A DNA stretch of 64,000 bases, taken from Leptodesmis sichuanensis A121 (lineage in GTDB: Bacteria > Cyanobacteriota > Cyanobacteriia > Leptolyngbyales > Leptolyngbyaceae). Made by a program: the position numbers and the translations under genes. Positions 880 to 17,948 of this stretch are shown piece by piece (position 1 is the stretch's first letter; each line of letters begins with the position of its first letter). The notes beneath the pieces were generated by a model. The model was given only the letters and a program-made list of their open reading frames with translations. It was not told where the DNA came from and did no database searches. The stretch is taken from assembly GCF_021379005.1 (NCBI RefSeq), contig NZ_CP075171.1, positions 2,356,001 through 2,420,000 of the forward strand. Direction: 5' to 3'.

Positions 880-1470
880 TTCTAAATTCTAGCTGCGTCA
901 CAACCTCCAAATCCCGGCCTACGGGACTGAAACACTTCTAATGGCAATACCTTGTACCCCACCCCAAATTGTCACAACCTCCAAATCCCGGCCTACGGGA
1001 CTGAAACCGTTCTGGTCAGCGTAGGCGACGTTGGCTCGTGTTAGTCACAACCTCCAAATCCCGGCCTACGGGACTGAAACGACTGGTTGGAAACCAGAGT
1101 CCCGGCAACAGTAGTGTCACAACCTCCAAATCCCGGCCTACGGGACTGAAACTTGTTGACACACTGAGGCACGCTCTGCACCGGAAGAGAGTCACAACCT
1201 CCAAATCCCGGCCTACGGGACTGAAACAGCGTGATTGAATCGGAGGTATTTGATACGTTGAAGGTCACAACCTCCAAATCCCGGCCTACGGGACTGAAAC
1301 CTTACAAATAAGATTGGTAGAGGGATGGCGATCGCGCGTCACAACCTCCAAATCCCGGCCTACGGGACTGAAACTGCCCAAAAATCCCAGATTGCTTGGG
1401 TAGCCAATCCTGTCACAACCTCCAAATCCCGGCCTACGGGACTGAAACACTGGATTCGTGCCAGTGACTA

Positions 1471-2596
1471 TTGCCTCGGCAATAAAATAGAATGCATTCT
1501 ACAACGCAGCATAAGCAATCAATGGATGCTTGAAATAATTTCTAATCCGAGCAGGTAGCTTCTGTAACTTCCGCAATTGAGATAACACTCGCCCTTTCAA
1601 CTGCTTCAAATTACGACTCGGTGGTTTGTCATGCACGCCCTGCTTCACATCACCATTGAAGTATTCAGTTGGATTCAATTCTGGCGAATAGGAGGGTAAG
1701 TAAAATAACTCAATCTGCTCGAGGTGTTCTCGTAACCACTGTTTCACGCTCTGTTGCCGATGCACGGGATGCCGGTCCACAATCCAAAATAGTTTCCGCT
1801 GGCGCTTGGCGATCAACCGCTGGCAAAATCGGATGAACAGTTCTGCTGCCAACGTGCAAGTGTAGAGCATAAACTGGACTCCTCCCTGGTTACTCACACT
1901 GGCAATGTAATTGACGCGCTCTCGGTTGCGCTCACTGGGACGAATCTCAGGAGACGTGCCCAGCAAGGCATACCCTCGTCCGCCATACTCAGTCGAGGAC
2001 ACGCCTGATTCATCCCCCCAAGCAATCTCTGCTCCTTCGGTTTTGGCCCGTTGCTCAATCTCCGGATACTCGTGTTCCAACCACCGTTGTACCGTCTTTG
2101 GGTCTTGCTCGTAGGCTCGCTCTACGGGTTTCTTGGGCGTGTACCCCCAGCGTTTCAAATACTCTCCCACCGTGCGAATTGGCATTTTCACCTGACACAC
2201 TTGCTCCATTAATGCCTGCACCGCTCGTCTTGTCCACAGGGCACTATCAATCTGGTAATCTTCCGGAAAATGATCTTGCATCGCCGTTTGCACGGCCTCT
2301 TCCTGCCAGCGCTCCAAGGTTCGCCCCTCCCCCACTTGTCGTCCCCGCTCTAACTGATAGAGAGCATCCTCTCCATAATGTTCATACTCCCACCACCATT
2401 CCCATACCGTGTTGCGGTGAACGCCCAAATACTCACTAATGTCTTTAACCCGTTTGCCCTGCTCTCGGAGGCGAATCGCTTGCTGCCGCAGGTAGTTTTG
2501 GGTTTCTATCGAGAGGTGCCTGGCATCTGGTTTATCCATCACAAACCTCCTTGTGCCTGTATATTCATTATGTCTTGTGTTTAGTTGCCGGAGCAA
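1471..2596 (-). mobile_element. IS630-family insertion sequence inside a CRISPR spacer
   Basis: The element is 1126 bp, flanked by TA at 1469-1470 and 2597-2598, as expected for the IS630/Tc1/mariner superfamily. The ends are imperfect inverted repeats: the left reads TTGCCTCGGCAAT and the reverse complement of the right reads TTGCTCCGGCAAC. Removing the element and one TA joins 1449-1470 to 2599-2612 and restores a 36-nt spacer. It carries one intact transposase gene on the minus strand, opposite to the inferred direction of array transcription. Confidence 0.95.
1499..2539 (-). CDS. IS630-family transposase, intact
   Basis: This 346-residue protein catalyses cut-and-paste transposition of the surrounding IS. 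An N-terminal helix-turn-helix (about residues 30-50, VKDISEYLGVHRNTVWEWW) would bind the element ends. The DDE catalytic triad is visible as D176 (WGDESG), D255 (WIVDRHPVH) and E292 (ELNPTEYF), with the last two spaced as in the IS630 family. The open frame extends upstream to 2668, but that part is only CRISPR repeat sequence read through. The start at 2539 is chosen because GGAGG lies just upstream and the ATG falls inside the IS. No frameshift or internal stop is seen, so the element could still be active. Confidence 0.95.
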   Translation of the reverse strand: MDKPDARHLSIETQNYLRQQAIRLREQGKRVKDISEYLGVHRNTVWEWWWEYEHYGEDALYQLERGRQVGEGRTLERWQEEAVQTAMQDHFPEDYQIDSALWTRRAVQALMEQVCQVKMPIRTVGEYLKRWGYTPKKPVERAYEQDPKTVQRWLEHEYPEIEQRAKTEGAEIAWGDESGVSSTEYGGRGYALLGTSPEIRPSERNRERVNYIASVSNQGGVQFMLYTCTLAAELFIRFCQRLIAKRQRKLFWIVDRHPVHRQQSVKQWLREHLEQIELFYLPSYSPELNPTEYFNGDVKQGVHDKPPSRNLKQLKGRVLSQLRKLQKLPARIRNYFKHPLIAYAAL

Positions 2597-3415
2597 TAAC
2601 TGGCCCCCTCCCGTCACAACCTCCAAATCCCGGCCTACGGGACTGAAACTGCTGAGAGTGTCAACCATTTTGTGTCACCCTATGGTCACAACCTCCAAAT
2701 CCCGGCCTACGGGACTGAAACATGGAGCCGTCACCCATTCCTGACCTGATGACTGAAAGTCACAACCTCCAAATCCCGGCCTACGGGACTGAAACTGTCT
2801 GCCGTGTCTGTGGCCACTCCTGTACAGAAGGTCACAACCTCCAAATCCCGGCCTACGGGACTGAAACTCAAATCGCGTGGCAAGTCCCCCCATTCGTGCT
2901 GCGGGTCACAACCTCCAAATCCCGGCCTACGGGACTGAAACTTGAAAAGGCGGGCACACCTAAGCAATAATTAGGAGTCACAACCTCCAAATCCCGGCCT
3001 ACGGGACTGAAACGCCAGTGCTCAACAGCCAGAAACCCAAACGGGCAACGTCACAACCTCCAAATCCCGGCCTACGGGACTGAAACGTTTTTAAGCCGTC
3101 GGGATGGTACGCCCAACTGATTGTCACAACCTCCAAATCCCGGCCTACGGGACTGAAACGCGAGTTATAGATGGTAACAGGAATGGCTGAAATGCGTCAC
3201 AACCTCCAAATCCCGGCCTACGGGACTGAAACCGTTGCCTAACCGATTCCGCAGGACAGGGAAGGTAAGTCACAACCTCCAAATCCCGGCCTACGGGACT
3301 GAAACCGGTTTTCTCTTTCTGCCCAATCTCTACCCGCTTCAGTCACAACCTCCAAATCCCGGCCTACGGGACTGAAACTTGTACTGGAAGTCCTTACGAC
3401 TCCTAGCTATCTGCT

Positions 3416-3452
3416 GTCACAACCTCCAAATCCCGGCCTACGGAACTGAAAC
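3416..3452 (+). repeat. Variant CRISPR repeat copy (G29A)
   Basis: This copy reads CGGAACTGAAAC where the others read CGGGACTGAAAC. The change is at 3444 (repeat position 29) and would turn a C-G pair of the TCCCG/CGGGA stem into an A-C mismatch. The copies on both sides are normal. Confidence 0.95.
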
Positions 3453-6400
3453 TTCTAATTCCTGCTGAAAAGAAACGGGGGGATCACTAGTCACAACCTC
3501 CAAATCCCGGCCTACGGGACTGAAACCTGTGGTTGTTCGTGCTGTCAGAGGGCGGCTGCGGCTGGGTCACAACCTCCAAATCCCGGCCTACGGGACTGAA
3601 ACCCCAGGCCAGCAGTAGCAGCAGTCCTTTGGCCCGCGTCACAACCTCCAAATCCCGGCCTACGGGACTGAAACTGCTGACTCGGCACGATCAGGAGATT
3701 GCAGGCATCCGGGTCACAACCTCCAAATCCCGGCCTACGGGACTGAAACAGTAGAAATCTCGACCCATGAGTAGGCCAGGATCTTGAGTCACAACCTCCA
3801 AATCCCGGCCTACGGGACTGAAACGAGGCAGACTCCAGGTAAAACGGGGCAAGTTCTGCTTGCCGTCACAACCTCCAAATCCCGGCCTACGGGACTGAAA
3901 CATTGTCGAACCACAGCCAGAAACTGAAGGAACAGAATCAACTGAGTCACAACCTCCAAATCCCGGCCTACGGGACTGAAACAGGGTTTCATGACGACTA
4001 AAGTCGATTTGATTCGTCGTCACAACCTCCAAATCCCGGCCTACGGGACTGAAACAAAGCCCTTCTACAGTTGCAAAGTGGGAGGCTAGGGACGGTCACA
4101 ACCTCCAAATCCCGGCCTACGGGACTGAAACTTGAAAACCCAGCTAAAAACAGCCGTTGCACTGAAAGTCACAACCTCCAAATCCCGGCCTACGGGACTG
4201 AAACCATTGCCATTTCCAGGCCCATTTCCAGAACCCCCGTGTCACAACCTCCAAATCCCGGCCTACGGGACTGAAACGCACCGGATATAGTACAGGCCCC
4301 CACCTGCACTTTGGTCACAACCTCCAAATCCCGGCCTACGGGACTGAAACATCGAATATCAGCGGTTGCAACGCCAGATGATAGGTCACAACCTCCAAAT
4401 CCCGGCCTACGGGACTGAAACGCTTTAGGATTTGTTGGTGAACCTAATTCAGGCAGTCACAACCTCCAAATCCCGGCCTACGGGACTGAAACTCCAGCGC
4501 AGCCTGTCGATCGCGCAGGTCGGCTTCCGTCACAACCTCCAAATCCCGGCCTACGGGACTGAAACTAATCCCCGATTGTTGTACCCAACTATTCCCGCTC
4601 CGTCACAACCTCCAAATCCCGGCCTACGGGACTGAAACTTCTCTAAAGAGTTCTGTATAAAATACGGAATCATTCGTCACAACCTCCAAATCCCGGCCTA
4701 CGGGACTGAAACGTGGAATTGCCAGTCTTACCAGTCAGTACCCATATAGTCACAACCTCCAAATCCCGGCCTACGGGACTGAAACAAAATCTCCACAGAA
4801 TTTCCCATCCAACGGCAAGGTCACAACCTCCAAATCCCGGCCTACGGGACTGAAACAAACAGCCACCGCGATCGCTAAATTCCTGGGCTTTGTCACAACC
4901 TCCAAATCCCGGCCTACGGGACTGAAACTAAAAACAAAAGTGTTTGCCCCCATAGACCCGTGGAGTCACAACCTCCAAATCCCGGCCTACGGGACTGAAA
5001 CGCTGGATTGTGCATGATGTAGGCACCATTTGCTGGGTCACAACCTCCAAATCCCGGCCTACGGGACTGAAACGATGCAGGGGCAGCCTTAGCCTTTGCC
5101 TGCTTTTTAGTGTCACAACCTCCAAATCCCGGCCTACGGGACTGAAACCACCACACCCGGAAATTGAGCGTCGAACACGCCACGTCACAACCTCCAAATC
5201 CCGGCCTACGGGACTGAAACCTCCCAACTGAGGACCTGCCTGGAGTCAGCCACTCCGTCACAACCTCCAAATCCCGGCCTACGGGACTGAAACTAACAAG
5301 TCCGTTGCCGCGTACCTATCCAAGTACGTCAGGTCACAACCTCCAAATCCCGGCCTACGGGACTGAAACACGATCGCCTACTCTAAAAGCGGAGTCCCTC
5401 AGGGGTCACAACCTCCAAATCCCGGCCTACGGGACTGAAACCTGCATAGCGCGGTCATTACTTCCGGCGGCATGGGGTGTCACAACCTCCAAATCCCGGC
5501 CTACGGGACTGAAACAAGAAATGTCGCGAACCAGGCCGCCAATTTTGCGTGGTCACAACCTCCAAATCCCGGCCTACGGGACTGAAACTTGGCTTAGGCT
5601 CTGGCAGGTAGATTTGCGGTGGTGGTCACAACCTCCAAATCCCGGCCTACGGGACTGAAACACGCCTTCTTCCCGTCTGTGCCGGGGCCGCTGAGTGGGT
5701 CACAACCTCCAAATCCCGGCCTACGGGACTGAAACTACCTACTGGACGCCTTAGCTTATTCCTTCAGATTTGTCACAACCTCCAAATCCCGGCCTACGGG
5801 ACTGAAACAAATCGCTGGGTTTGATTTTGGGCTTAAGACATTCCTGTCACAACCTCCAAATCCCGGCCTACGGGACTGAAACATCTTAATCGTTCTGATT
5901 GTTGCTGCTATCATTACCAGTCACAACCTCCAAATCCCGGCCTACGGGACTGAAACAATTAATTGAACTCACAGCATCACCTGAAGAATTCAAGTCACAA
6001 CCTCCAAATCCCGGCCTACGGGACTGAAACGGAACAAAAATCTGTGATATTTACTATTCAGATTCGTCACAACCTCCAAATCCCGGCCTACGGGACTGAA
6101 ACACATCGTTAGGATTGAGAACTGTTTTACTTGATCTTGGTCACAACCTCCAAATCCCGGCCTACGGGACTGAAACATTTGAGGTCAGTTGGTGCCCTAC
6201 GCCGGTCACTCTAAGTCACAACCTCCAAATCCCGGCCTACGGGACTGAAACATCGGCTTCCAGCCTCTGCCTCCAGTCACTGACGCTGTCACAACCTCCA
6301 AATCCCGGCCTACGGGACTGAAACACTAAGTGCAGGATCGAAGAGGCGTCTGCCACTTTTGTCACAACCTCCAAATCCCGGCCTACGGGACTGAAACACT

Positions 6401-6659
6401 TCGACTTGGTCAAGACTCTCAGTGGCATCACAAAGTCACAACCTCCAAATCCCGGCCTACGGGACTGAAACTTGGATGAAGATCGTCGAAGGTATTGAGA
6501 TTCAGGGGGAGTCACAACCTCCAAATCCCGGCCTACGGGACTGAAACCCCCATTTTTTGAGTACGCGATCGTCACGTTATATGTCACAACCTCCAAATCC
6601 CGGCCTACGGGACTGAAACCACTTCTGTTTGACAAGGAACCTCACTGCTTCTCGGTTCT

Positions 6660-10301: not shown

Positions 10302-11150
10302 ATGAAATGGGAATTTGGTCGTCGCAGTAGCAACGTTGAAGATCGGCGGGGAATGCCCGCAGGCCCAGTGGTGGGGGGTGGGATTGGTGCGATTTTGCTG
10401 GCGATCGTCGTGACTCTATTGGGAGGCGATCCCTCCGCTATTTTGAATCAGGCTCCCCCAACGACCAGTAACCGACCGACCACCCAGGCTCCCGCTCCAC
10501 CTGCCAATGACCAGATGGCCAACTTTGTTTCAGTGGTACTGGCGGATACCGAAGATACCTGGAGCGCTCTGTTTCGACAAATGGGCCGTACTTACCGAAA
10601 TCCAAAGCTCGTACTATTCTCCGGATCCACGCAGTCGGCTTGTGGCTACGCAAAGTCAGCCATGGGGCCGTTTTATTGCCCCCTCGACCAGAAGGTGTAT
10701 ATCGATCTGTCCTTTTATCGGGATCTGAAGTACAAGCACAATGCCCCAGGAGATTTTGCCCAGGCGTATGTGATTGCTCATGAGGTCGGTCATCATGTCC
10801 AGAATCTGATGGGCATTTCGGGGAAGGTGCAATCTCTACAACGGCGGGTGAGCCAGGAACAGGCTAATCAGCTATCGGTGATGCTGGAGCTACAGGCCGA
10901 TTGTCTGGCGGGAGTTTGGGGCTATCATGCCGATCGCACTCGTCAAATCCTGGAACAAGGTGATATTGAAGAAGCGCTGAATGCAGCCAGCAGTATTGGG
11001 GACGATCGCCTACAAGCGCAAGCCAGAGGCTATGTGGTGCCAGAATCCTTTACCCACGGCAGTTCGGCGCAACGGGTACGCTGGTTTAAGCGGGGTATGC
11101 AGACGGGTGACATTAACCAGTGCAACACCTTTGAAGCCCGCAATCTCTGA
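10302..11150 (+). CDS. Neutral zinc metallopeptidase, YpfJ/KPN_02809 family
   Basis: This 282-residue membrane-anchored putative zinc peptidase has an N-terminal basic segment followed by one transmembrane helix (about residues 24-42, VGGGIGAILLAIVVTLLGG). After a Pro/Thr-rich linker, the conserved domain contains CGYAKSAMGPFYCP, the zinc-binding and catalytic HEVGHHVQ and, downstream, ELQADCLAG, whose acidic residue probably completes the zinc site. This order and length match the PF04228 family. Substrates are unknown. The gene lies just upstream of tRNA-Pro on the same strand. Confidence 0.9.
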   Translation: MKWEFGRRSSNVEDRRGMPAGPVVGGGIGAILLAIVVTLLGGDPSAILNQAPPTTSNRPTTQAPAPPANDQMANFVSVVLADTEDTWSALFRQMGRTYRNPKLVLFSGSTQSACGYAKSAMGPFYCPLDQKVYIDLSFYRDLKYKHNAPGDFAQAYVIAHEVGHHVQNLMGISGKVQSLQRRVSQEQANQLSVMLELQADCLAGVWGYHADRTRQILEQGDIEEALNAASSIGDDRLQAQARGYVVPESFTHGSSAQRVRWFKRGMQTGDINQCNTFEARNL

Positions 11151-11214
11151 TCGGCCATAATCTGAATCAGCCCTGACGGGAATGTGATACTCTGGGTTAG
11201 TATCATTGATGTGG

Positions 11215-11288
11215 CGGGATGTAGCGCAGCTTGGTAGCGCACTTCGTTCGGGACGAAGGGGCCGCTGGTTCGAATCCAGTCATCCCGA
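11215..11288 (+). tRNA. tRNA-Pro (anticodon CGG)
   Basis: The 74-nt cloverleaf has a 7-bp acceptor stem CGGGATG/CATCCCG, a D-arm with GCGC/GCGC, and an anticodon arm CTTCG-TTCGGGA-CGAAG with CGG at positions 34-36. The T-arm is GCTGG-TTCGAAT-CCAGT and the discriminator is A. The 3' CCA is not encoded. It would read the CCG codon. Confidence 0.97.
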
Positions 11289-11570
11289 TTGGACGATCGC
11301 GTAGGATTGGGCGATCGCGTAGGATAGAAAAAAATTGCTCCTCATAGCGCTCCCTGCCTGCAAACTCTTACTCTCATCATAGGCTTCCGGTTGGGTGAAC
11401 GCGATCGCCAGTATTGGGGTGGACAGTAGAATGAGGAAGCCAGAGTCCCGAATTGAGAAGAACGACAGCGAATTCTGATCGCCAATCCCCAAAACTTACC
11501 TTCCCTTAACCTCTAAGATGCACAATCTTAGGGTTAAGGTCTTTAGACGTTGGATTGGAAACACCGGCTT

Positions 11571-11951
11571 ATGTTGGAACCTGCCCATACTGTTGAAATC
11601 TTTCAAAGGCAACCAGATTTGAGAACTTTGAAGCCAGGCGAGGCAATCTACCACGAAGGAGATGCTGCCGATTATATGTACGGCATCATCGAGGGAGAGG
11701 TAGAGATGGTAAAGCAGGGCAAGGTGTATGAAACGTTAAAGGCCGGACAGGTCTTTGGCATCGGGGGCATTCTGGGTGTTGGCCCCCGCCAGTCCGATGC
11801 GATCGCCAAAACCGATTGCAAACTAGCATACCTGGAGCAAAAACATTTCCTGTTTGCTGTCCAGGAAACCCCTATGTTTGCCGTTGAGGTAATGAGGAAC
11901 TATTCCATCCGCCTCAGACGGTTAATGGATGCCTCATGCGAGGGGGAATGA
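11571..11951 (+). CDS. Small cyclic-nucleotide-binding domain protein
   Basis: This 126-residue protein consists of a single cNMP-binding beta-barrel with no DNA-binding domain. Visible features are LKPGEAIYHEGDAADYMYGIIEGEVE (barrel start), the turn GQVFGIGG and a phosphate-binding-cassette-like stretch ending in RQSDAIAKTDCKLAYL, followed by a C-terminal helix. The canonical Arg-Ala pair of a cAMP site is not obvious, so ligand binding is uncertain. The frame opens at a TTG at 11550; the ATG at 11571 fits the domain better. The stop overlaps the next gene by an ATGA, which suggests translational coupling to the pyruvate-kinase-like protein. Confidence 0.85.
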   Translation: MLEPAHTVEIFQRQPDLRTLKPGEAIYHEGDAADYMYGIIEGEVEMVKQGKVYETLKAGQVFGIGGILGVGPRQSDAIAKTDCKLAYLEQKHFLFAVQETPMFAVEVMRNYSIRLRRLMDASCEGE

Positions 11952-13534
11952 TGGTTCTATCGATTCCTGAACAAGCGGATAGTTTACCCTTTGCCCTGGA
12001 ACATCTGAGCCATACCAATCCCTATACGCTGCTGAAGGCAATGACCCTGTTGCGGCAGACGGTTCATGACCAGGGACAGGCCATGTTTGAGCAGTGGCGA
12101 TCGCGCATCCATCGACCTGACTTCCTTCCCAGTGCGCTGAACCTGGCTTATTATCTGGCTCTCCGACGCTATGATTTGCGTCCCTTGCAAACGGCTTTAA
12201 TGCCCTGGGGGTTGTCCTCTTTGGGACGAATTGAAGCCCGAGTGATGCCCAATCTGGATGCGGTAATTGCAACTCTGAGTGCGATTTGCCATCTGGATCC
12301 AGCTTCCTGTCTTCCCCGTCCTGTCCCTGCGGATTTCTTTGCAGGCGACCATCAACTGCAGCATCATACGGAAGAATTGTTTGGCAAAGCGGTGGACAAT
12401 CGGCGAGTTCGTATCATGGTCACTTTACCCACCGCCGCAGCAGAAAATTATCACCTGATCCAAGATTTGATGCAGCGGGGCACAGCCTGTGTTCGCATCA
12501 ACTGTGCTCACGATACTCCGGAGCAGTGGCTGGCTATGATCAACCATGTGCGACGAGCCAGTCGGGAAACGGGACGAGCTTGCAAGGTATTGATGGATCT
12601 GGGCGGCCCCAAACCTCGCACTGGGGAAGTCTTCCATCCGGTTGGTCAAAAGCGTGTATTCAACGGCGATCGCATCTGGCTCTCGCGGGAGGCCATTCCA
12701 CCTTCCAGCACTGAAGCGATCGCTCTCGACTCCTTACCACCCGGTTACTTTCAGACCGGATGTATGTTGCCTGGAATCATCGAGCATTTACAAGTGGGAG
12801 CCTCTGTCTGGATTGACGATGGCAAGATTGGCGCACGGGTGGTGGATACTCATTATTCCCTATCCGCTGAGAGTCAGGATGGGGTATTGCTGGAGGTGAT
12901 GCAGGTTGGCCCAAAAGGTGCCAAGTTGCGGCCTGAAAAGGGGATGAATTTTCCTGATACCCAATTGCCCCTGAATCCGTTAACGGATCAGGACTTGCAA
13001 GATCTAGACTTTGTGGTGGCTCATGCCGATATTGTGGGCTATTCCTTTGTGCAAACGGCGGCAGATATGGAACGCTTGCAAAACGAGATTGCGGCTCGAT
13101 TGCAGGGACGGCCCTCTAAGCTGGCGATCGTCGCCAAAATTGAAACTCCTACAGCCGTGCAGCATCTCCCCGAACTGATTGTGCAGGCCGCTGGTCGCTA
13201 TCCCTTTGGAGTGATGATTGCGCGAGGAGATCTGGCGATCGAGATTGGCTATCAGCGGCTGGCAGAAATGCAGGAAGAAATCCTCTGGCTCTGTGAAGCG
13301 GCTCACGTTCCGGTGATCTGGGCAACTCAGGTGCTGGAAAATCTGGTGAAAACAGGACTGCCCTCACGGGGAGAAATCACCGATGCGGCGATGGCAGAAC
13401 GGGCAGAATGCGTCATGCTCAATAAAGGCCCGTTTATTGCGGAAGCCGTTACCATTCTGGATGATGTGCTAACCCGGATGCAGGCGCATCAACTGAAAAA
13501 GACCTCCCAATTGCGGGCACTGCATTCCTGGTAA
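11948..13534 (+). CDS. Pyruvate-kinase-like protein with N-terminal extension and no C-terminal domain
   Basis: This 528-residue protein has a unique region of about 150 residues followed by a pyruvate-kinase TIM barrel. Equivalents of PK motifs are VRINCAHD, MDLGGPKPRTG, DIVGYSFVQTAADM, AKIETPTAV (catalytic Lys and metal-binding Glu kept), MIARGDLAIEIG (metal-binding Asp kept) and ATQVLENL. Departures include GG for the usual TKG turn and MLNKGPF in place of MLSGETA. The usual C-terminal allosteric domain is absent. It would convert phosphoenolpyruvate and ADP to pyruvate and ATP if active, but the changes leave this open. Its start overlaps the cNMP-binding gene (ATGA) and ackA follows 17 bp later. 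Confidence 0.85.
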   Translation: MMVLSIPEQADSLPFALEHLSHTNPYTLLKAMTLLRQTVHDQGQAMFEQWRSRIHRPDFLPSALNLAYYLALRRYDLRPLQTALMPWGLSSLGRIEARVMPNLDAVIATLSAICHLDPASCLPRPVPADFFAGDHQLQHHTEELFGKAVDNRRVRIMVTLPTAAAENYHLIQDLMQRGTACVRINCAHDTPEQWLAMINHVRRASRETGRACKVLMDLGGPKPRTGEVFHPVGQKRVFNGDRIWLSREAIPPSSTEAIALDSLPPGYFQTGCMLPGIIEHLQVGASVWIDDGKIGARVVDTHYSLSAESQDGVLLEVMQVGPKGAKLRPEKGMNFPDTQLPLNPLTDQDLQDLDFVVAHADIVGYSFVQTAADMERLQNEIAARLQGRPSKLAIVAKIETPTAVQHLPELIVQAAGRYPFGVMIARGDLAIEIGYQRLAEMQEEILWLCEAAHVPVIWATQVLENLVKTGLPSRGEITDAAMAERAECVMLNKGPFIAEAVTILDDVLTRMQAHQLKKTSQLRALHSW

Positions 13535-13551
13535 TTCCACCCCCTAAACCT

Positions 13552-14778
13552 ATGAAGATATTGGTGCTCAACGCCGGATCCAGTAGTCAGAAAAGTTGCC
13601 TCTACGATCTGCCCAACGATCGCTTACCGGAGGATCCGTTAGAGCCAGTGTGGGACGGCTTTGTAGACTGGACTCACCATCAGGGCTTTGCAGAAGTGCG
13701 GGTGAAGACAGCCGCAGGAGCGGTACTCAAAGAAGAGATTCAAACGACGGATAAGCCCGCCGTAGTCCAGCACTTGATGAATACGTTGTGGCAAGGTGAG
13801 ACGCAGGTAATCGAAAAACCTGATGAAATTGCTGCCGTAGGGCATCGAGTTGTTCATGGGGGAGACAAATACCAGGAACGGGTACGGATTACGCCAGCGG
13901 TAAAAGCTGCGATCGCCGACCTCGCAGTCTTTGCCCCGGTACATAATCCCGCCAACCTGGAAGGCATTGAAACAACCGAGCAAATTTTGGGGCCAACCGT
14001 TCCCCAGATCGCCGTTTTCGACACCGCGTTTCATACTCACCTGCCGCCGCCAGCCTATGCCTACCCCATTCCTTACCGTTATCTGGAACAGGGCATTCGT
14101 CGCTATGGATTTCATGGCATCAGTCACCAATACTGCGCCCACCGAGCCGCTCAACTCCTGGGTCGGAATCTCCAGGAGTTGCGTTTAATTACCTGCCATT
14201 TGGGTAATGGTTGCTCTCTAGCTGCGATTCAAAATGGGGTCAGCATTGATACAACGATGGGCTTCACGCCCCTGGAAGGCGTGATGATGGGTAGCCGTTC
14301 TGGTTCCATAGATCCTGGAATTTTAATTCACCTTCTGCGCCAGGAGAACTATACAGCCGATGAATTGGACAAGCTGCTGAATCGCGCTTCTGGCTTACAG
14401 GGAGTTTCTGGAGTCTCCGCCGATTTGCGGCAGGTGATGCGGGCGATCGCCGATGGCAATCAGCAGGCCAAACTGGCTTTTGATGTTTACATTCATCGCC
14501 TCCGAGCCGGGATCGGCTCCATGCTGGCCAGTCTGGGAGGGCTGGATGCTCTGGTCTTTACCGCAGGTGTAGGAGAAAACTCCGCCCCTGTGCGAGCCGC
14601 CACCTGCCAAAACCTGGCCTTCTTGGGACTGAAGCTGGATCTCGATCAGAATAATTCTCACCCCGTTGATCAAGACATTGCCACCCCAGATTCAACCATC
14701 CGAGTCCTGGTGATTCATACGCAGGAAGATTGGGCGATCGCGCAGGAATGCTGGAGGTTAGTAACCAGCGATCGCTGA
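13552..14778 (+). CDS. ackA: Acetate kinase
   Basis: AckA interconverts acetyl phosphate plus ADP and acetate plus ATP in the cytosol, supporting fermentation and acetyl-phosphate turnover. The 408-residue protein has the N-terminal VLNAGSSSQK signature, the middle motif GYRFHGISH in the form RRYGFHGISH, the phosphate-binding CHLGNG, GFTPLEGVMMGSRSG and the C-terminal FTAGVGENS. Length is normal. It follows the pyruvate-kinase-like gene by 17 bp and probably shares its transcript, which links pyruvate and acetate energy metabolism. No phosphotransacetylase or phosphoketolase gene is in the window. Confidence 0.98.
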   Translation: MKILVLNAGSSSQKSCLYDLPNDRLPEDPLEPVWDGFVDWTHHQGFAEVRVKTAAGAVLKEEIQTTDKPAVVQHLMNTLWQGETQVIEKPDEIAAVGHRVVHGGDKYQERVRITPAVKAAIADLAVFAPVHNPANLEGIETTEQILGPTVPQIAVFDTAFHTHLPPPAYAYPIPYRYLEQGIRRYGFHGISHQYCAHRAAQLLGRNLQELRLITCHLGNGCSLAAIQNGVSIDTTMGFTPLEGVMMGSRSGSIDPGILIHLLRQENYTADELDKLLNRASGLQGVSGVSADLRQVMRAIADGNQQAKLAFDVYIHRLRAGIGSMLASLGGLDALVFTAGVGENSAPVRAATCQNLAFLGLKLDLDQNNSHPVDQDIATPDSTIRVLVIHTQEDWAIAQECWRLVTSDR

Positions 14779-14852
14779 ATGATGCATAATCATTCACGGT
14801 GATTACCATTCACCATCCCTTAATTCCTCATTCCTAATCCCCAGCCCCTCAA

Positions 14853-15773
14853 ATGCTCGTCTGGTTCATGCATGGTGCTTCTGTCCGGCAACCCGCCTAT
14901 GCCGATCCGTTGCGATCGCGCCTGATTGCAGAATTTACGGCTCTGGGTTTACCCATACCAGAGTTCTATTCCGCTTACTGGGGAGACACCTTGGGGAACA
15001 CCAACGAAATTTGGGACTTTGTGCAGCAAGATCTGGAAGCCTTCAAATTTGAGCATCCCCAGATTGACGTGGATGATGTTTTTCACTATCGCCAGCGCCG
15101 AGAACAACTGATCAACGGCTTCTTCCACGACATCTTTAAATACTTGAGCGGTCAGCAGGGCAAGGAAATCCGCCACACCGTTGCCACCCAATTTCTGGAC
15201 TTCCTCACCGATAATCCTCTGGAAGAAGACCTGCATATTGTGGTGCATTCCCTCAGTAGCGTTATTTTGTGGGATCTGCTGTTTTCAGAAGCCTATAGTA
15301 CTGAGGGAGATCCGGCCTACTACGTGCGCCAGGTGATTAAAGGATTAAGTGGCCCAGGAGCAGGGCGTAAAGTCCGATTGCGGAGCATTACCACCATGGG
15401 CTGTCCACTGCTGATTTTTCGGCAATTGATGAGCGTGAATAACCAGAAACTGATTGAGTTTGCGGGGCGCTATGTGGGAAATCCTCTACGTTGGATCAAC
15501 GTCATTCATGCCTCTGATGTATTTGCCTATCCCTTGCGCTCCAGCCTTAACTTAGAAGGTTCCAACCTGTTTTTCCGTGATCATTATCTGGGGGAACGCA
15601 ACTTTTTCAAAAAGAACATTGGCGATGTGGCAATGGCACTGGGAATTGTCACCGATCACAGCCGATACTGGCGTAGTCTGCGAGTCAGTAAGCTCGTACA
15701 GGCCAATCTCCTGGGAGACTACGAAACCCTCGCTTACAACAGCCCCGTGCTGGACTTTGGCGACTTTGACTAA
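14853..15773 (+). CDS. Conserved cyanobacterial protein, alpha/beta-hydrolase-like
   Basis: The 306-residue product has features of an alpha/beta hydrolase: an early strand-turn LVWFMHGASV, a nucleophile-elbow-like IVVHSLSSVILWDLL near residue 130 (the first Gly of GxSxG is missing) and a strand TMGCPLL. A histidine-containing NVIHASDVF could complete a triad. No signal peptide is present. It lies 74 bp after ackA on the same strand and may be the last gene of that operon. Enzymatic function is not established. Confidence 0.65.
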   Translation: MLVWFMHGASVRQPAYADPLRSRLIAEFTALGLPIPEFYSAYWGDTLGNTNEIWDFVQQDLEAFKFEHPQIDVDDVFHYRQRREQLINGFFHDIFKYLSGQQGKEIRHTVATQFLDFLTDNPLEEDLHIVVHSLSSVILWDLLFSEAYSTEGDPAYYVRQVIKGLSGPGAGRKVRLRSITTMGCPLLIFRQLMSVNNQKLIEFAGRYVGNPLRWINVIHASDVFAYPLRSSLNLEGSNLFFRDHYLGERNFFKKNIGDVAMALGIVTDHSRYWRSLRVSKLVQANLLGDYETLAYNSPVLDFGDFD

Positions 15774-15820
15774 AGCTTAGCAGAGTATATTCTTGGTATG
15801 CCGCTACGTACAAACCTAAT

Positions 15821-17067
15821 GGTTCTCCCGTTAGTACTGTGATAACTTTATTTAATCAGAGAAGCAGGCTAATAGTCTTTCTCGAAAATTGTTGAAATTG
15901 ACAAAGCCATAAGCTTGCCGTTTAATCAATTTAATTCGGTTGTTGATTCCCTCCATTGCGCCACTCGTTGTGCGATTCCGAAAGTAGTTGCTAATCCCAT
16001 CTAAATGGTTACGAATCGTTGTGCTTGCTTCACTATAGACGACTCGCGCTTGATCGAGCCACCCTTGGATCTGACGCTTGCCTTCCTCAACGGTTAATGG
16101 TTGTTCATAAATCGCGCGAAACTCTTCTTTCCACTCATAGGCTTTTCCTAATCGCTTTGACCGTTTCAGAATCTCTTCTAACTTTGTCTTTTCTTCTGCT
16201 GTTAAATCCTTGCCATTCTTGAGCAAAATGAATTTGCTACCTCGGTCTGATACACCCGATTGTCTACGAATTTTATTTAACTCCTCATTGACTAATTTCA
16301 TGACATGAAAGCGGTCAATCACTACCACGGCATTGGGAAACACTTTCTTGACTACCTTTGGGAATCCTCCCCACATATCCACGCTCACCTCTTCAACTTT
16401 TGCACGCACCTCTATGGGCTGCTGCTTCAGGGTTTCAATAATGTCTTCCTGTTGGTGACTGTCAATCACTTCAATCAATTTCCCGGCCTCAACGTCGCCG
16501 ATAACGGTGGCGAAGTTTTGATGCCCTTTCCGCTTGCTGATTTCATCAATCCCAATGCGTTTGACTCCTGCCCATCCCGTGTTTTTTTCTGTGCATACTG
16601 ATGCTTGAAAATCCCTTCAATGCGCTCAAAGCTTAATCCTTCTACGCGACCCACTTGCTCCATACTTGACAGTTGTACTTGCTGGTAAATATGCTCCTCA
16701 TAGCGTCGAGTGTACTGCCGTCCTGCATCCATAAATGTCAATGACTCAGTAAAATAACGTTGGCAATCACGACAATAAAACTGACGACGAGGAATTTTCA
16801 AATAAGTGACTTGGCCAAAAATCGATAGGTCTCGAATCAAAATCGGACGGTTTTGATGCAACTCTGAACTTAATTTCTTACAGTGTGGACAGCTAGATTC
16901 TTGATTGAGCAAGCGCAACTTTAAGTACACTTCATTGTCTTTTTGAATGCAACTTTCAACCGTAACGTGAGGGAAGTTAAGCAATCTATCAAGATGTATG
17001 TCCATTGGCGCAATCCCTGACTGAAAGTATCATATTATACGATTTTCACCCCGGATCCGGAAGAGCC
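15821..17067 (-). mobile_element. ISL3-family insertion sequence with perfect 8-bp target duplication
   Basis: The element is 1247 bp. The left end reads GGTTCTCCCG and the reverse complement of the right end reads GGCTCTTCCGG, forming imperfect terminal inverted repeats. AACCTAAT is present immediately outside both ends (15813-15820 and 17068-17075), matching the 8-bp duplications made by ISL3 elements. The preserved duplication implies a recent insertion. The transposase reading frame is split by a frameshift. Confidence 0.93.
15852..17005 (-). pseudogene. ISL3-family transposase, split by a -1 frameshift at an A7 run
   Basis: Two overlapping frames together make one ISL3 transposase of about 380 residues. 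The upstream part (17005 down to about 16590) has the zinc-ribbon cysteines CPHC and CRDC and helical DNA-binding sequence. The downstream part (to 15852) carries VSVDMWGGF, VVIDRFHV and GAMEGINNRIK with DDE-type acidic residues. Continuity breaks at seven As on the coding strand (T7 at 16583-16589). Reading one base back after QKK gives NTGWAGVKRIGIDEISKRKG, the expected family sequence. This may be a 1-nt deletion or a functional slippage site; I list it as a broken gene because most ISL3 transposases are single frames. Confidence 0.85.
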
Positions 17068-17277: not shown

Positions 17278-17541
17278 ATGACCCTTTTTGATTTCACGAT
17301 CGCTAAACTGCAGCAACTTCCTGAACCACTTTTACAAGAAGTGAACGATTTCATTGATTACGTTATCTATAAGTACCAGGCTAGGGCGACTGATAGACAG
17401 TCTGCTGAGGAATTTGTGAGAGCATGGACGCAGTGGTTTGAAACTGTGGATCACTTGGATAGAGCAATCTTATCTGAACCGGTCACTGATTATCAGCAAC
17501 TGTTACTCGACAAATATCGACAACAAGGTCTAGACCTATGA
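17278..17541 (+). CDS. Antitoxin of a VapBC-like pair, DUF2281-like
   Basis: The 87-residue protein begins with TIAKLQQLPEPLLQEVNDFIDYVIYK, the helical segment typical of DUF2281-type antitoxins. Its C-terminal part (LSEPVTDYQQLLLDKYRQQG) is probably the toxin-binding tail. It is expected to bind and neutralise the PIN protein encoded next, and such complexes usually repress their own promoter. The stop overlaps the toxin start in an ATGA arrangement. The pair lies directly downstream of the ISL3 insertion. Confidence 0.8.
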   Translation: MTLFDFTIAKLQQLPEPLLQEVNDFIDYVIYKYQARATDRQSAEEFVRAWTQWFETVDHLDRAILSEPVTDYQQLLLDKYRQQGLDL

Positions 17542-17948
17542 TTCTGTGCGATGCAGGGGTTTTACTTTGCCTGGTCGATCGTACCCAGCCCCAGCATCAA
17601 GCCTGCAAAAATGCAGTTCTACGTTTGGCCAAGCCTCTTACCACAACTTGGTCTTGCCTGACGGAAGCCATGTATCTCGCCCTTCATCGGGGCGGTTGGC
17701 AGATGCAAAAGCAGTTGGGGAAGCTTCTTCTAGATAAACTGCTGACAGTTTACGAAATTCAGGAGAGTGACTATGGCCATTTGTTGGCACTGATGGAGCA
17801 ATATCGCGATAGACCAATGGACTTGGCAGACGCAACATTAGTTTTGGCATCTGAGAAAATGGGCTATCGGAAAATTCTTACCCTTGACTCTGACTTCTTG
17901 TTTTACCGGATTGGCGATCAGGGCACCTTTGATGTCATTCAAATTTAG
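17538..17948 (+). CDS. PIN-domain ribonuclease toxin, VapC-like
   Basis: This 136-residue PIN protein is a predicted Mg-dependent ribonuclease toxin. The acidic active-site residues are visible as D5 (ILCDAG), E43 (CLTEAMYL), D95 and D98 (MDLADATLV) and D117/D119 (LTLDSDF). Length is normal for VapC. It overlaps the upstream antitoxin gene by 4 nt, which fits co-translation and the usual antitoxin-toxin order. The target RNA is unknown. Confidence 0.88.
   Translation: MILCDAGVLLCLVDRTQPQHQACKNAVLRLAKPLTTTWSCLTEAMYLALHRGGWQMQKQLGKLLLDKLLTVYEIQESDYGHLLALMEQYRDRPMDLADATLVLASEKMGYRKILTLDSDFLFYRIGDQGTFDVIQI

What the first reader, a model, noticed from the sequence alone, without database searches (positions are those of the whole stretch)
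11571..15773. Coupled cNMP-binding, pyruvate-kinase-like and acetate kinase genes
A stand-alone cNMP-binding barrel overlaps (ATGA) a pyruvate kinase homologue that lacks the allosteric C-terminal domain but has a unique 150-residue N-terminal region. Acetate kinase and a hydrolase-like protein follow. The small barrel may replace the lost regulatory domain in trans, forming a nucleotide-sensing switch on pyruvate/acetate energy metabolism. I know of no described system of this kind.
Basis: partly seen in the sequence, partly recalled or inferred. Interest (0 to 1): 0.68.

Follow-up and report, generated by a model that had tools for sequence, protein, structure and literature searches.

The report
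Small sensor-fold gene beside fermentation genes
A cyanobacterium carries a small gene for a cyclic-nucleotide-binding-type protein in front of a short pyruvate kinase and acetate kinase; the pairing with that pyruvate kinase is local, but the same small gene sits beside glycogen-breakdown and acetate genes in many cyanobacteria, which points to an undescribed control protein of fermentation.

Summary
The genes are real: a 126-aa cNMP-binding-fold (CNB) protein (11571-11951), a 532-aa pyruvate kinase (PK) without its C-terminal domain (ATGA overlap), acetate kinase (AckA) and a hydrolase-like protein. The specific idea, that the CNB protein replaces the PK's lost domain in trans, is not supported. 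The PK is close to an existing family (NF011314/PRK14725); its cyanobacterial orthologues share the N-terminal region and lack the C-domain. None of 40 other loci has the CNB gene beside it, and 21 of 40 genomes with this PK lack the CNB gene. What is conserved is different: the CNB gene lies within 2 kb of ackA in 7 of 41 genera (expected 0.05), and elsewhere in XFP-GlgP-CNB-AckA, XFP-CNB-AckA or GlgP-CNB-Pyk arrays, including beside a PK that keeps its C-domain. So the broader guess, a small sensor tied to glycogen/acetate fermentation, gains support. The phosphate-binding Arg is invariant (141/141), but the ribose-binding Glu is kept in only 24% and is Ile here, so cyclic-nucleotide sensing by this copy is doubtful. 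Partner enzyme and ligand are unknown. I found no published description in the library searched.

The parts
11571..11951 (+). Stand-alone CNB (cNMP-binding-fold) protein, 126 aa: N-helix, beta-roll with phosphate-binding cassette (FGIGGILGVGPRQSDAIA), then B/C helices carrying the family signature LFAVQETPMFAVEVMRNYSIRLRRL; no DNA-binding domain
   Evidence: PF00027; AF2 model pLDDT 89.5; family alignment
11948..11951 (+). ATGA stop/start overlap of the CNB and PK genes
   Evidence: Sequence. The same PK type has 4-bp overlaps with unrelated genes in other genomes
11948..13534 (+). Pyruvate kinase of the PRK14725/NF011314 type: ~150-aa conserved, uncharacterised N-terminal region + PK barrel, no PK_C domain; longest frame starts at 11936
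13552..14778 (+). Acetate kinase AckA, 408 aa
   Evidence: TIGR00016 481.7 bits; the only AckA match of the genome at E<=1e-40
14853..15773 (+). Hydrolase-like protein, 306 aa, no Pfam match; a 65% identical copy follows CNB-AckA in genome G411

Best explanation
The locus is a fermentation-type operon, CNB > PK > AckA > hydrolase. Its conserved core is the CNB gene with ackA; the PK is a mobile member of the pathway that lies between them in this lineage only. The CNB protein is most likely a small ligand-sensing regulatory protein for glycogen-to-acetate catabolism (glycogen phosphorylase, phosphoketolase, pyruvate kinase, acetate kinase), acting by protein contact rather than by binding DNA, since it consists of one CNB fold and nothing else. 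Proposed working: a phosphate-bearing ligand enters the beta-roll and is held by the invariant Arg; this moves the B/C helices with the conserved QETPxFA..R face and alters a partner enzyme when the cell turns to stored glycogen in darkness or anoxia. Shown: the fold (predicted model), the gene order, the recurrent linkage, the invariant Arg and the variable Glu. Inferred: that it regulates, that it acts post-translationally, the ligand class and the condition. Unknown: which enzyme is the partner. The PK itself is probably an active, K+-independent-type isozyme whose lack of a C-domain is a trait of its family.
For: CNB within 2 kb of ackA in 7 of 41 genera of the phylum sample, expected 0.05, Poisson p ~2e-13 with genera taken as independent (from coordinates). 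Gaps are about 18-44 bp in eight genomes. Arrays XFP>GlgP>CNB>AckA (L232), XFP>CNB>CNB>AckA (L233), XFP..CNB>AckA (L109), AckA..CNB>XFP (L126), GpmB>CNB>AckA..HYD (L066), GlgP>CNB>Pyk in Fischerella muscicola SAG 1427-1 (L207), with a truncated or contig-cut pyk in F. muscicola PCC 7414 and Pelatocladus (L211, L213). On the CNB family tree the linked label needs 12 changes, at least 6 forced by well-supported branches, so the association is scattered rather than confined to one clade. R73, A79, P101 and R114 are invariant in 141 distinct sequences. In other genomes the PK type lies beside LDH-GpmA, a D-2-hydroxyacid dehydrogenase, PEP synthase or within a HoxU-PK-HoxY array, all pyruvate or fermentation contexts.
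Against: Most CNB genes (for example nearly all those in Nostocales) are not next to these genes, so linkage is not required. No CNB-enzyme fusion was seen in the matches of 386 genomes (frame lengths). There is no direct evidence of binding, ligand or effect. In the nearest CNB relative (86%, G423) the gene carries an internal stop and has neither PK nor ackA directly downstream. Gene clustering can reflect shared expression alone.
Confidence: 0.5

Rival explanations
1. Trans-acting domain: the CNB protein binds this C-domain-less PK and supplies nucleotide-dependent allosteric control.
For: ATGA overlap and shared operon in this genome; CNB also precedes a canonical pyk in Fischerella.
Against: No CNB neighbour at any of the 40 other loci with this PK type; 21 of 40 genomes with this PK lack the CNB gene; the C-domain is missing family-wide; the Fischerella Pyk keeps PK_C; 4-bp overlaps with other genes occur; PBC Glu is missing in this CNB copy.
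Confidence: 0.08
2. Shared expression only: the CNB protein works elsewhere (for example pairing with CRP-type regulators through its C helix, or as a general second-messenger receptor) and is carried in fermentation operons because it is needed at the same time.
For: Most CNB genes lie in unrelated neighbourhoods; the genome has nine class III nucleotide cyclase domains; CRP dimerises through the C helix (established knowledge).
Against: The neighbours that recur are repeatedly of one pathway (glgP, xfp, pyk, ackA), across several family-level groups.
Confidence: 0.3
3. Degenerate passenger: in this lineage the CNB protein has lost its ligand pocket and function.
For: Unusual PBC (FGIGGI.., Glu lost, D76 where T is usual) and a long branch in the tree; the nearest relative has an internal stop.
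Against: The ORF is intact with all invariant family residues (R73, A79, P101, R114); Glu is absent from 76% of family members too.
Confidence: 0.12

Closest known systems
Stand-alone CNB-domain proteins / CRP-FNR receptor domains (PF00027)
   Same: Full CNB fold with phosphate-binding cassette and invariant Arg; best PDB matches are HCN and CRP cAMP domains
   Different: No HTH, channel or kinase attached; ribose-contacting Glu kept in only 24% of the family; linked to glycogen/acetate enzymes
Small metabolic regulators of cyanobacteria (PirC on phosphoglycerate mutase, CP12, SbtB; reviewed in PMC11257934)
   Same: Small stand-alone proteins that adjust carbon metabolism; pirC lies upstream of glgA1, a comparable genomic hint
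   Different: Different proteins (fold relation not tested); here no partner has been shown
Phosphoketolase-acetate kinase module of cyanobacteria (co-occurrence module 272, PMC5862535; ATP-sensitive XPK, PMC10365998)
   Same: Same enzymes, same pathway to acetate
   Different: PMC5862535 does not contain the words cyclic or cNMP, and no paper held all the terms searched
PRK14725/NF011314 pyruvate kinase
   Same: Same N-terminal region and C-domain-less barrel
   Different: Scores 591.7 against the 642 cut-off; shorter (532 vs 614 aa), lacking insertions seen in L076/L077
Synechocystis Pyk2 (PMC11101554)
   Same: Cyanobacterial PK, the ATP-yielding PEP-to-pyruvate step
   Different: Responds to glucose-6-phosphate and ribose-5-phosphate (its title); this genome has its own two canonical PKs besides

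Membership tests
CNB domain (PF00027) | Profile match above gathering score and CNB fold | tested here: met
   67.9 vs 27.5 bits; AF2 fold and PDB matches
Functional cAMP/cGMP receptor | PBC Glu (ribose 2'-OH) and Arg (phosphate) | tested here: not met
   Arg73 present, Glu64 replaced by Ile; binding itself not testable here
CRP/FNR transcription regulator | C-terminal helix-turn-helix | tested here: not met
   Protein ends after the C helix, 126 aa
Pyruvate kinase | PK barrel with catalytic Arg, Lys, Glu, Asp, Thr | tested here: met
   PF00224 158.7 bits; RIN, AKIE, ARGDL, ATQ motifs aligned with own Pyk1/Pyk2
Pyruvate kinase | Catalytic activity | not testable with these tools
   Needs assay
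Pyruvate kinase (canonical) | C-terminal PK_C domain | tested here: not met
   No PK_C match; the alignment ends after the barrel in the orthologues
NF011314/PRK14725 | Curated score cut-off 642 bits | tested here: not met
   591.7 bits, two stretches; close relative rather than formal member
Acetate kinase (TIGR00016) | Curated score cut-off | tested here: met
   481.7 vs 293.4 bits

The most novel reading that the evidence does not exclude
The CNB protein is a dedicated allosteric subunit of the ATP-yielding or glycogen-mobilising enzymes of cyanobacterial fermentation (acetate kinase, phosphoketolase, glycogen phosphorylase, pyruvate kinase), with a pocket that has moved from cyclic nucleotides to another phosphorylated metabolite, giving a direct metabolite switch between glycogen storage and acetate fermentation.
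Probability: 0.2. Interest if true: 0.75.

Novelty: new variant of a known kind. Interest (0 to 1): 0.5.

Why it matters
How cyanobacteria switch between storing carbon and fermenting glycogen to acetate is only partly understood, and acetate and glycogen flux are targets of engineering. A small, widespread, apparently undescribed CNB protein linked to exactly those enzymes is a concrete candidate control point that can be tested by deletion and pull-down. The result also corrects the first idea: the PK partnership is local, the acetate/glycogen partnership is general.

Tried and rejected
(1) Conserved CNB-PK pairing: rejected after 40 PK loci. (2) Unique N-terminal PK domain: rejected; family-wide, but Pfam at E<=1 and PDB profile searches name no known domain. 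(3) Rosetta-stone fusions of the CNB protein with an enzyme: none in 386 genomes; the one long frame looked at (G414) had an unrelated repeat-like sequence. (4) AlphaFold2 of the PK from a single sequence: pLDDT 39, useless; genome-search loci are not on the tool's list of allowed alignment rows, so none were sent. (5) Promoter/terminator scan of 11150-15900: no more sites than shuffles. (6) Named genome scan: its 80 kept loci were all cyanobacterial and none had ackA within the flanks held, so the ackA linkage comes from the whole-genome sample. (7) Literature: no paper with phosphoketolase, acetate kinase and cyclic nucleotide-binding in cyanobacteria, none naming PRK14725.

Full report
OBSERVATION. 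The window lies in a one-contig 5.35-Mb genome of the cyanobacterial phylum. Downstream of a tRNA-Pro (11215-11288) four + strand genes follow closely: a 126-aa CNB protein (11571-11951), a 532-aa PK (longest frame 11936-13534, ATG at 11948 overlapping the CNB stop as ATGA), AckA (13552-14778, gap 17 bp) and a 306-aa hydrolase-like protein (14853-15773). Pfam and NCBIfam confirm the first three; the fourth has no Pfam match. The genome has two other, canonical PKs; the second lies in an XFP-GlgP-Pyk array (L262).

THE PK. Its best family is NF011314 (PRK14725 pyruvate kinase), 591.7 bits against a cut-off of 642. Near-full-length copies (56-66% identity in the others) occur in 40 of 386 sampled genomes of the phylum, own genome included. 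Alignment shows that the orthologues lack the C-domain and share the N-terminal region, and that the catalytic motifs (RIN, AKIE, ARGDL, ATQ) are kept. The motif GPKPRTG carries the Lys that, from my own knowledge of the family, marks K+-independent pyruvate kinases. No other locus examined (29, 11, a few cut by contig ends) has a CNB gene beside the PK. The neighbours are instead lactate dehydrogenase with a phosphoglycerate-mutase-type histidine phosphatase, a D-2-hydroxyacid dehydrogenase, PEP synthase, or hydrogenase-type subunits on both sides (HoxU-PK-HoxY by my reading of the sequences, with a 4-bp overlap to HoxY). In another genome the PK overlaps a P-type ATPase gene by 4 bp. The overlap seen in the window is therefore ordinary tight packing. 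21 of 40 genomes with this PK have no CNB orthologue at about E<=1e-23. A distant PRK14725-type locus (L077) has a weak CNB homologue (36%) about 5 kb away on the other strand.

THE CNB PROTEIN. It belongs to a cyanobacterial family of single-domain proteins mostly of 122-129 aa. AlphaFold2 gives a complete CNB fold: N-helix, beta-roll, short PBC helix, B helix and a long C helix to residue 123, closest to HCN and CRP cAMP domains. Among 141 distinct sequences the PBC Arg (R73) is invariant; the Glu position is E in 34, otherwise mainly T, A, V, I or M; it is I in the window. There is no DNA-binding domain. The genome has nine class III nucleotide cyclase domains, so cyclic nucleotides are probably made, but this copy's pocket is not canonical.

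WHAT THE CNB GENE IS LINKED TO. From coordinates and from fetched loci: CNB>AckA at about 18-44 bp in G027, G111, G109, G119, G145, G187, G056 and, after a tandem CNB pair, G123; at about 150-275 bp in G411 and G387; AckA..CNB>XFP in G091; XFP upstream on the same strand in G027, G111 and G123; GlgP between XFP and CNB in G111; GpmB>CNB>AckA and a downstream HYD homologue in G411. In Fischerella muscicola SAG 1427-1 the order is GlgP>CNB>Pyk, the Pyk having PK_C. F. muscicola PCC 7414 has a truncated pyk there, Pelatocladus has a pyk cut by the contig end, Westiellopsis has GlgP>CNB only, and Okeania has a GlgP fragment directly upstream of CNB. Per genus, ackA lies within 2 kb in 7 of 41 genera against 0.05 expected (p ~2e-13, genera treated as independent; one of the seven is the window's own). 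On a 155-row tree the linked label needs 12 changes, at least 6 forced by supported branches; the tree is short on columns and many forks are open. Most CNB loci, above all in Nostocales, are not linked.

INTERPRETATION. The conserved partner set is glycogen phosphorylase, phosphoketolase, pyruvate kinase and acetate kinase, that is, the glycogen-to-acetate route with its ATP-yielding steps. A protein that is only a ligand-binding fold and recurs in that company is most simply a regulatory subunit or adaptor for one or more of these enzymes. That step is inference; linkage is shown and the fold is a confident prediction. Shared expression without contact is the main rival.

KNOWN OR NEW. The XFP-AckA functional pairing is known (PMC5862535), as are ATP-sensing by a cyanobacterial phosphoketolase (PMC10365998) and small regulators such as PirC and CP12 (PMC11257934). 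The full-text searches run found no mention of a CNB protein with these enzymes; subscription papers and preprints were not covered. I rate it a new variant of a known kind: a known fold in an undescribed, recurrent metabolic gene context.

Noticed in passing
window 897-6654 or so: Long CRISPR-type array with a 37-bp repeat GTCACAACCTCCAAATCCCGGCCTACGGGACTGAAAC and ~35-bp spacers, dozens of units.
   Followed up: partly
window 15852-17005 (-): ISL3-family transposase split in two frames directly downstream of the operon.
   Followed up: partly
window 17278-17948 (+): DUF2281 small protein overlapping a PIN-domain protein, toxin-antitoxin-like pair.
   Followed up: partly
L134:6004-8924: The same PK type sits inside a bidirectional-hydrogenase-type array, HoxU-PK-HoxY, overlapping HoxY by 4 bp.
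   Followed up: partly
L058/L059 (G423): In the nearest relative the CNB gene (86% identical) has an in-frame TAG near residue 75 and lies across two contigs that share 99 bp; pseudogene or MAG error.
   Followed up: partly
L184:7780-7983, L191:7781-7984: A ~68-residue glycogen phosphorylase fragment lies 17 bp upstream of the CNB gene in Okeania: apparent remnant of a GlgP-CNB array.
   Followed up: no
L211:8432-8962: Truncated pyk (176 aa) behind GlgP-CNB in Fischerella muscicola PCC 7414, whereas SAG 1427-1 has the full gene.
   Followed up: no
L245, L233: Tandem duplicated CNB genes in two genomes.
   Followed up: no
L271:1804-6324: XFP-GpmB-AckA array with a 4-bp GpmB/AckA overlap in genome G412, so other glycolytic-type genes also join the ackA operon.
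   Followed up: partly
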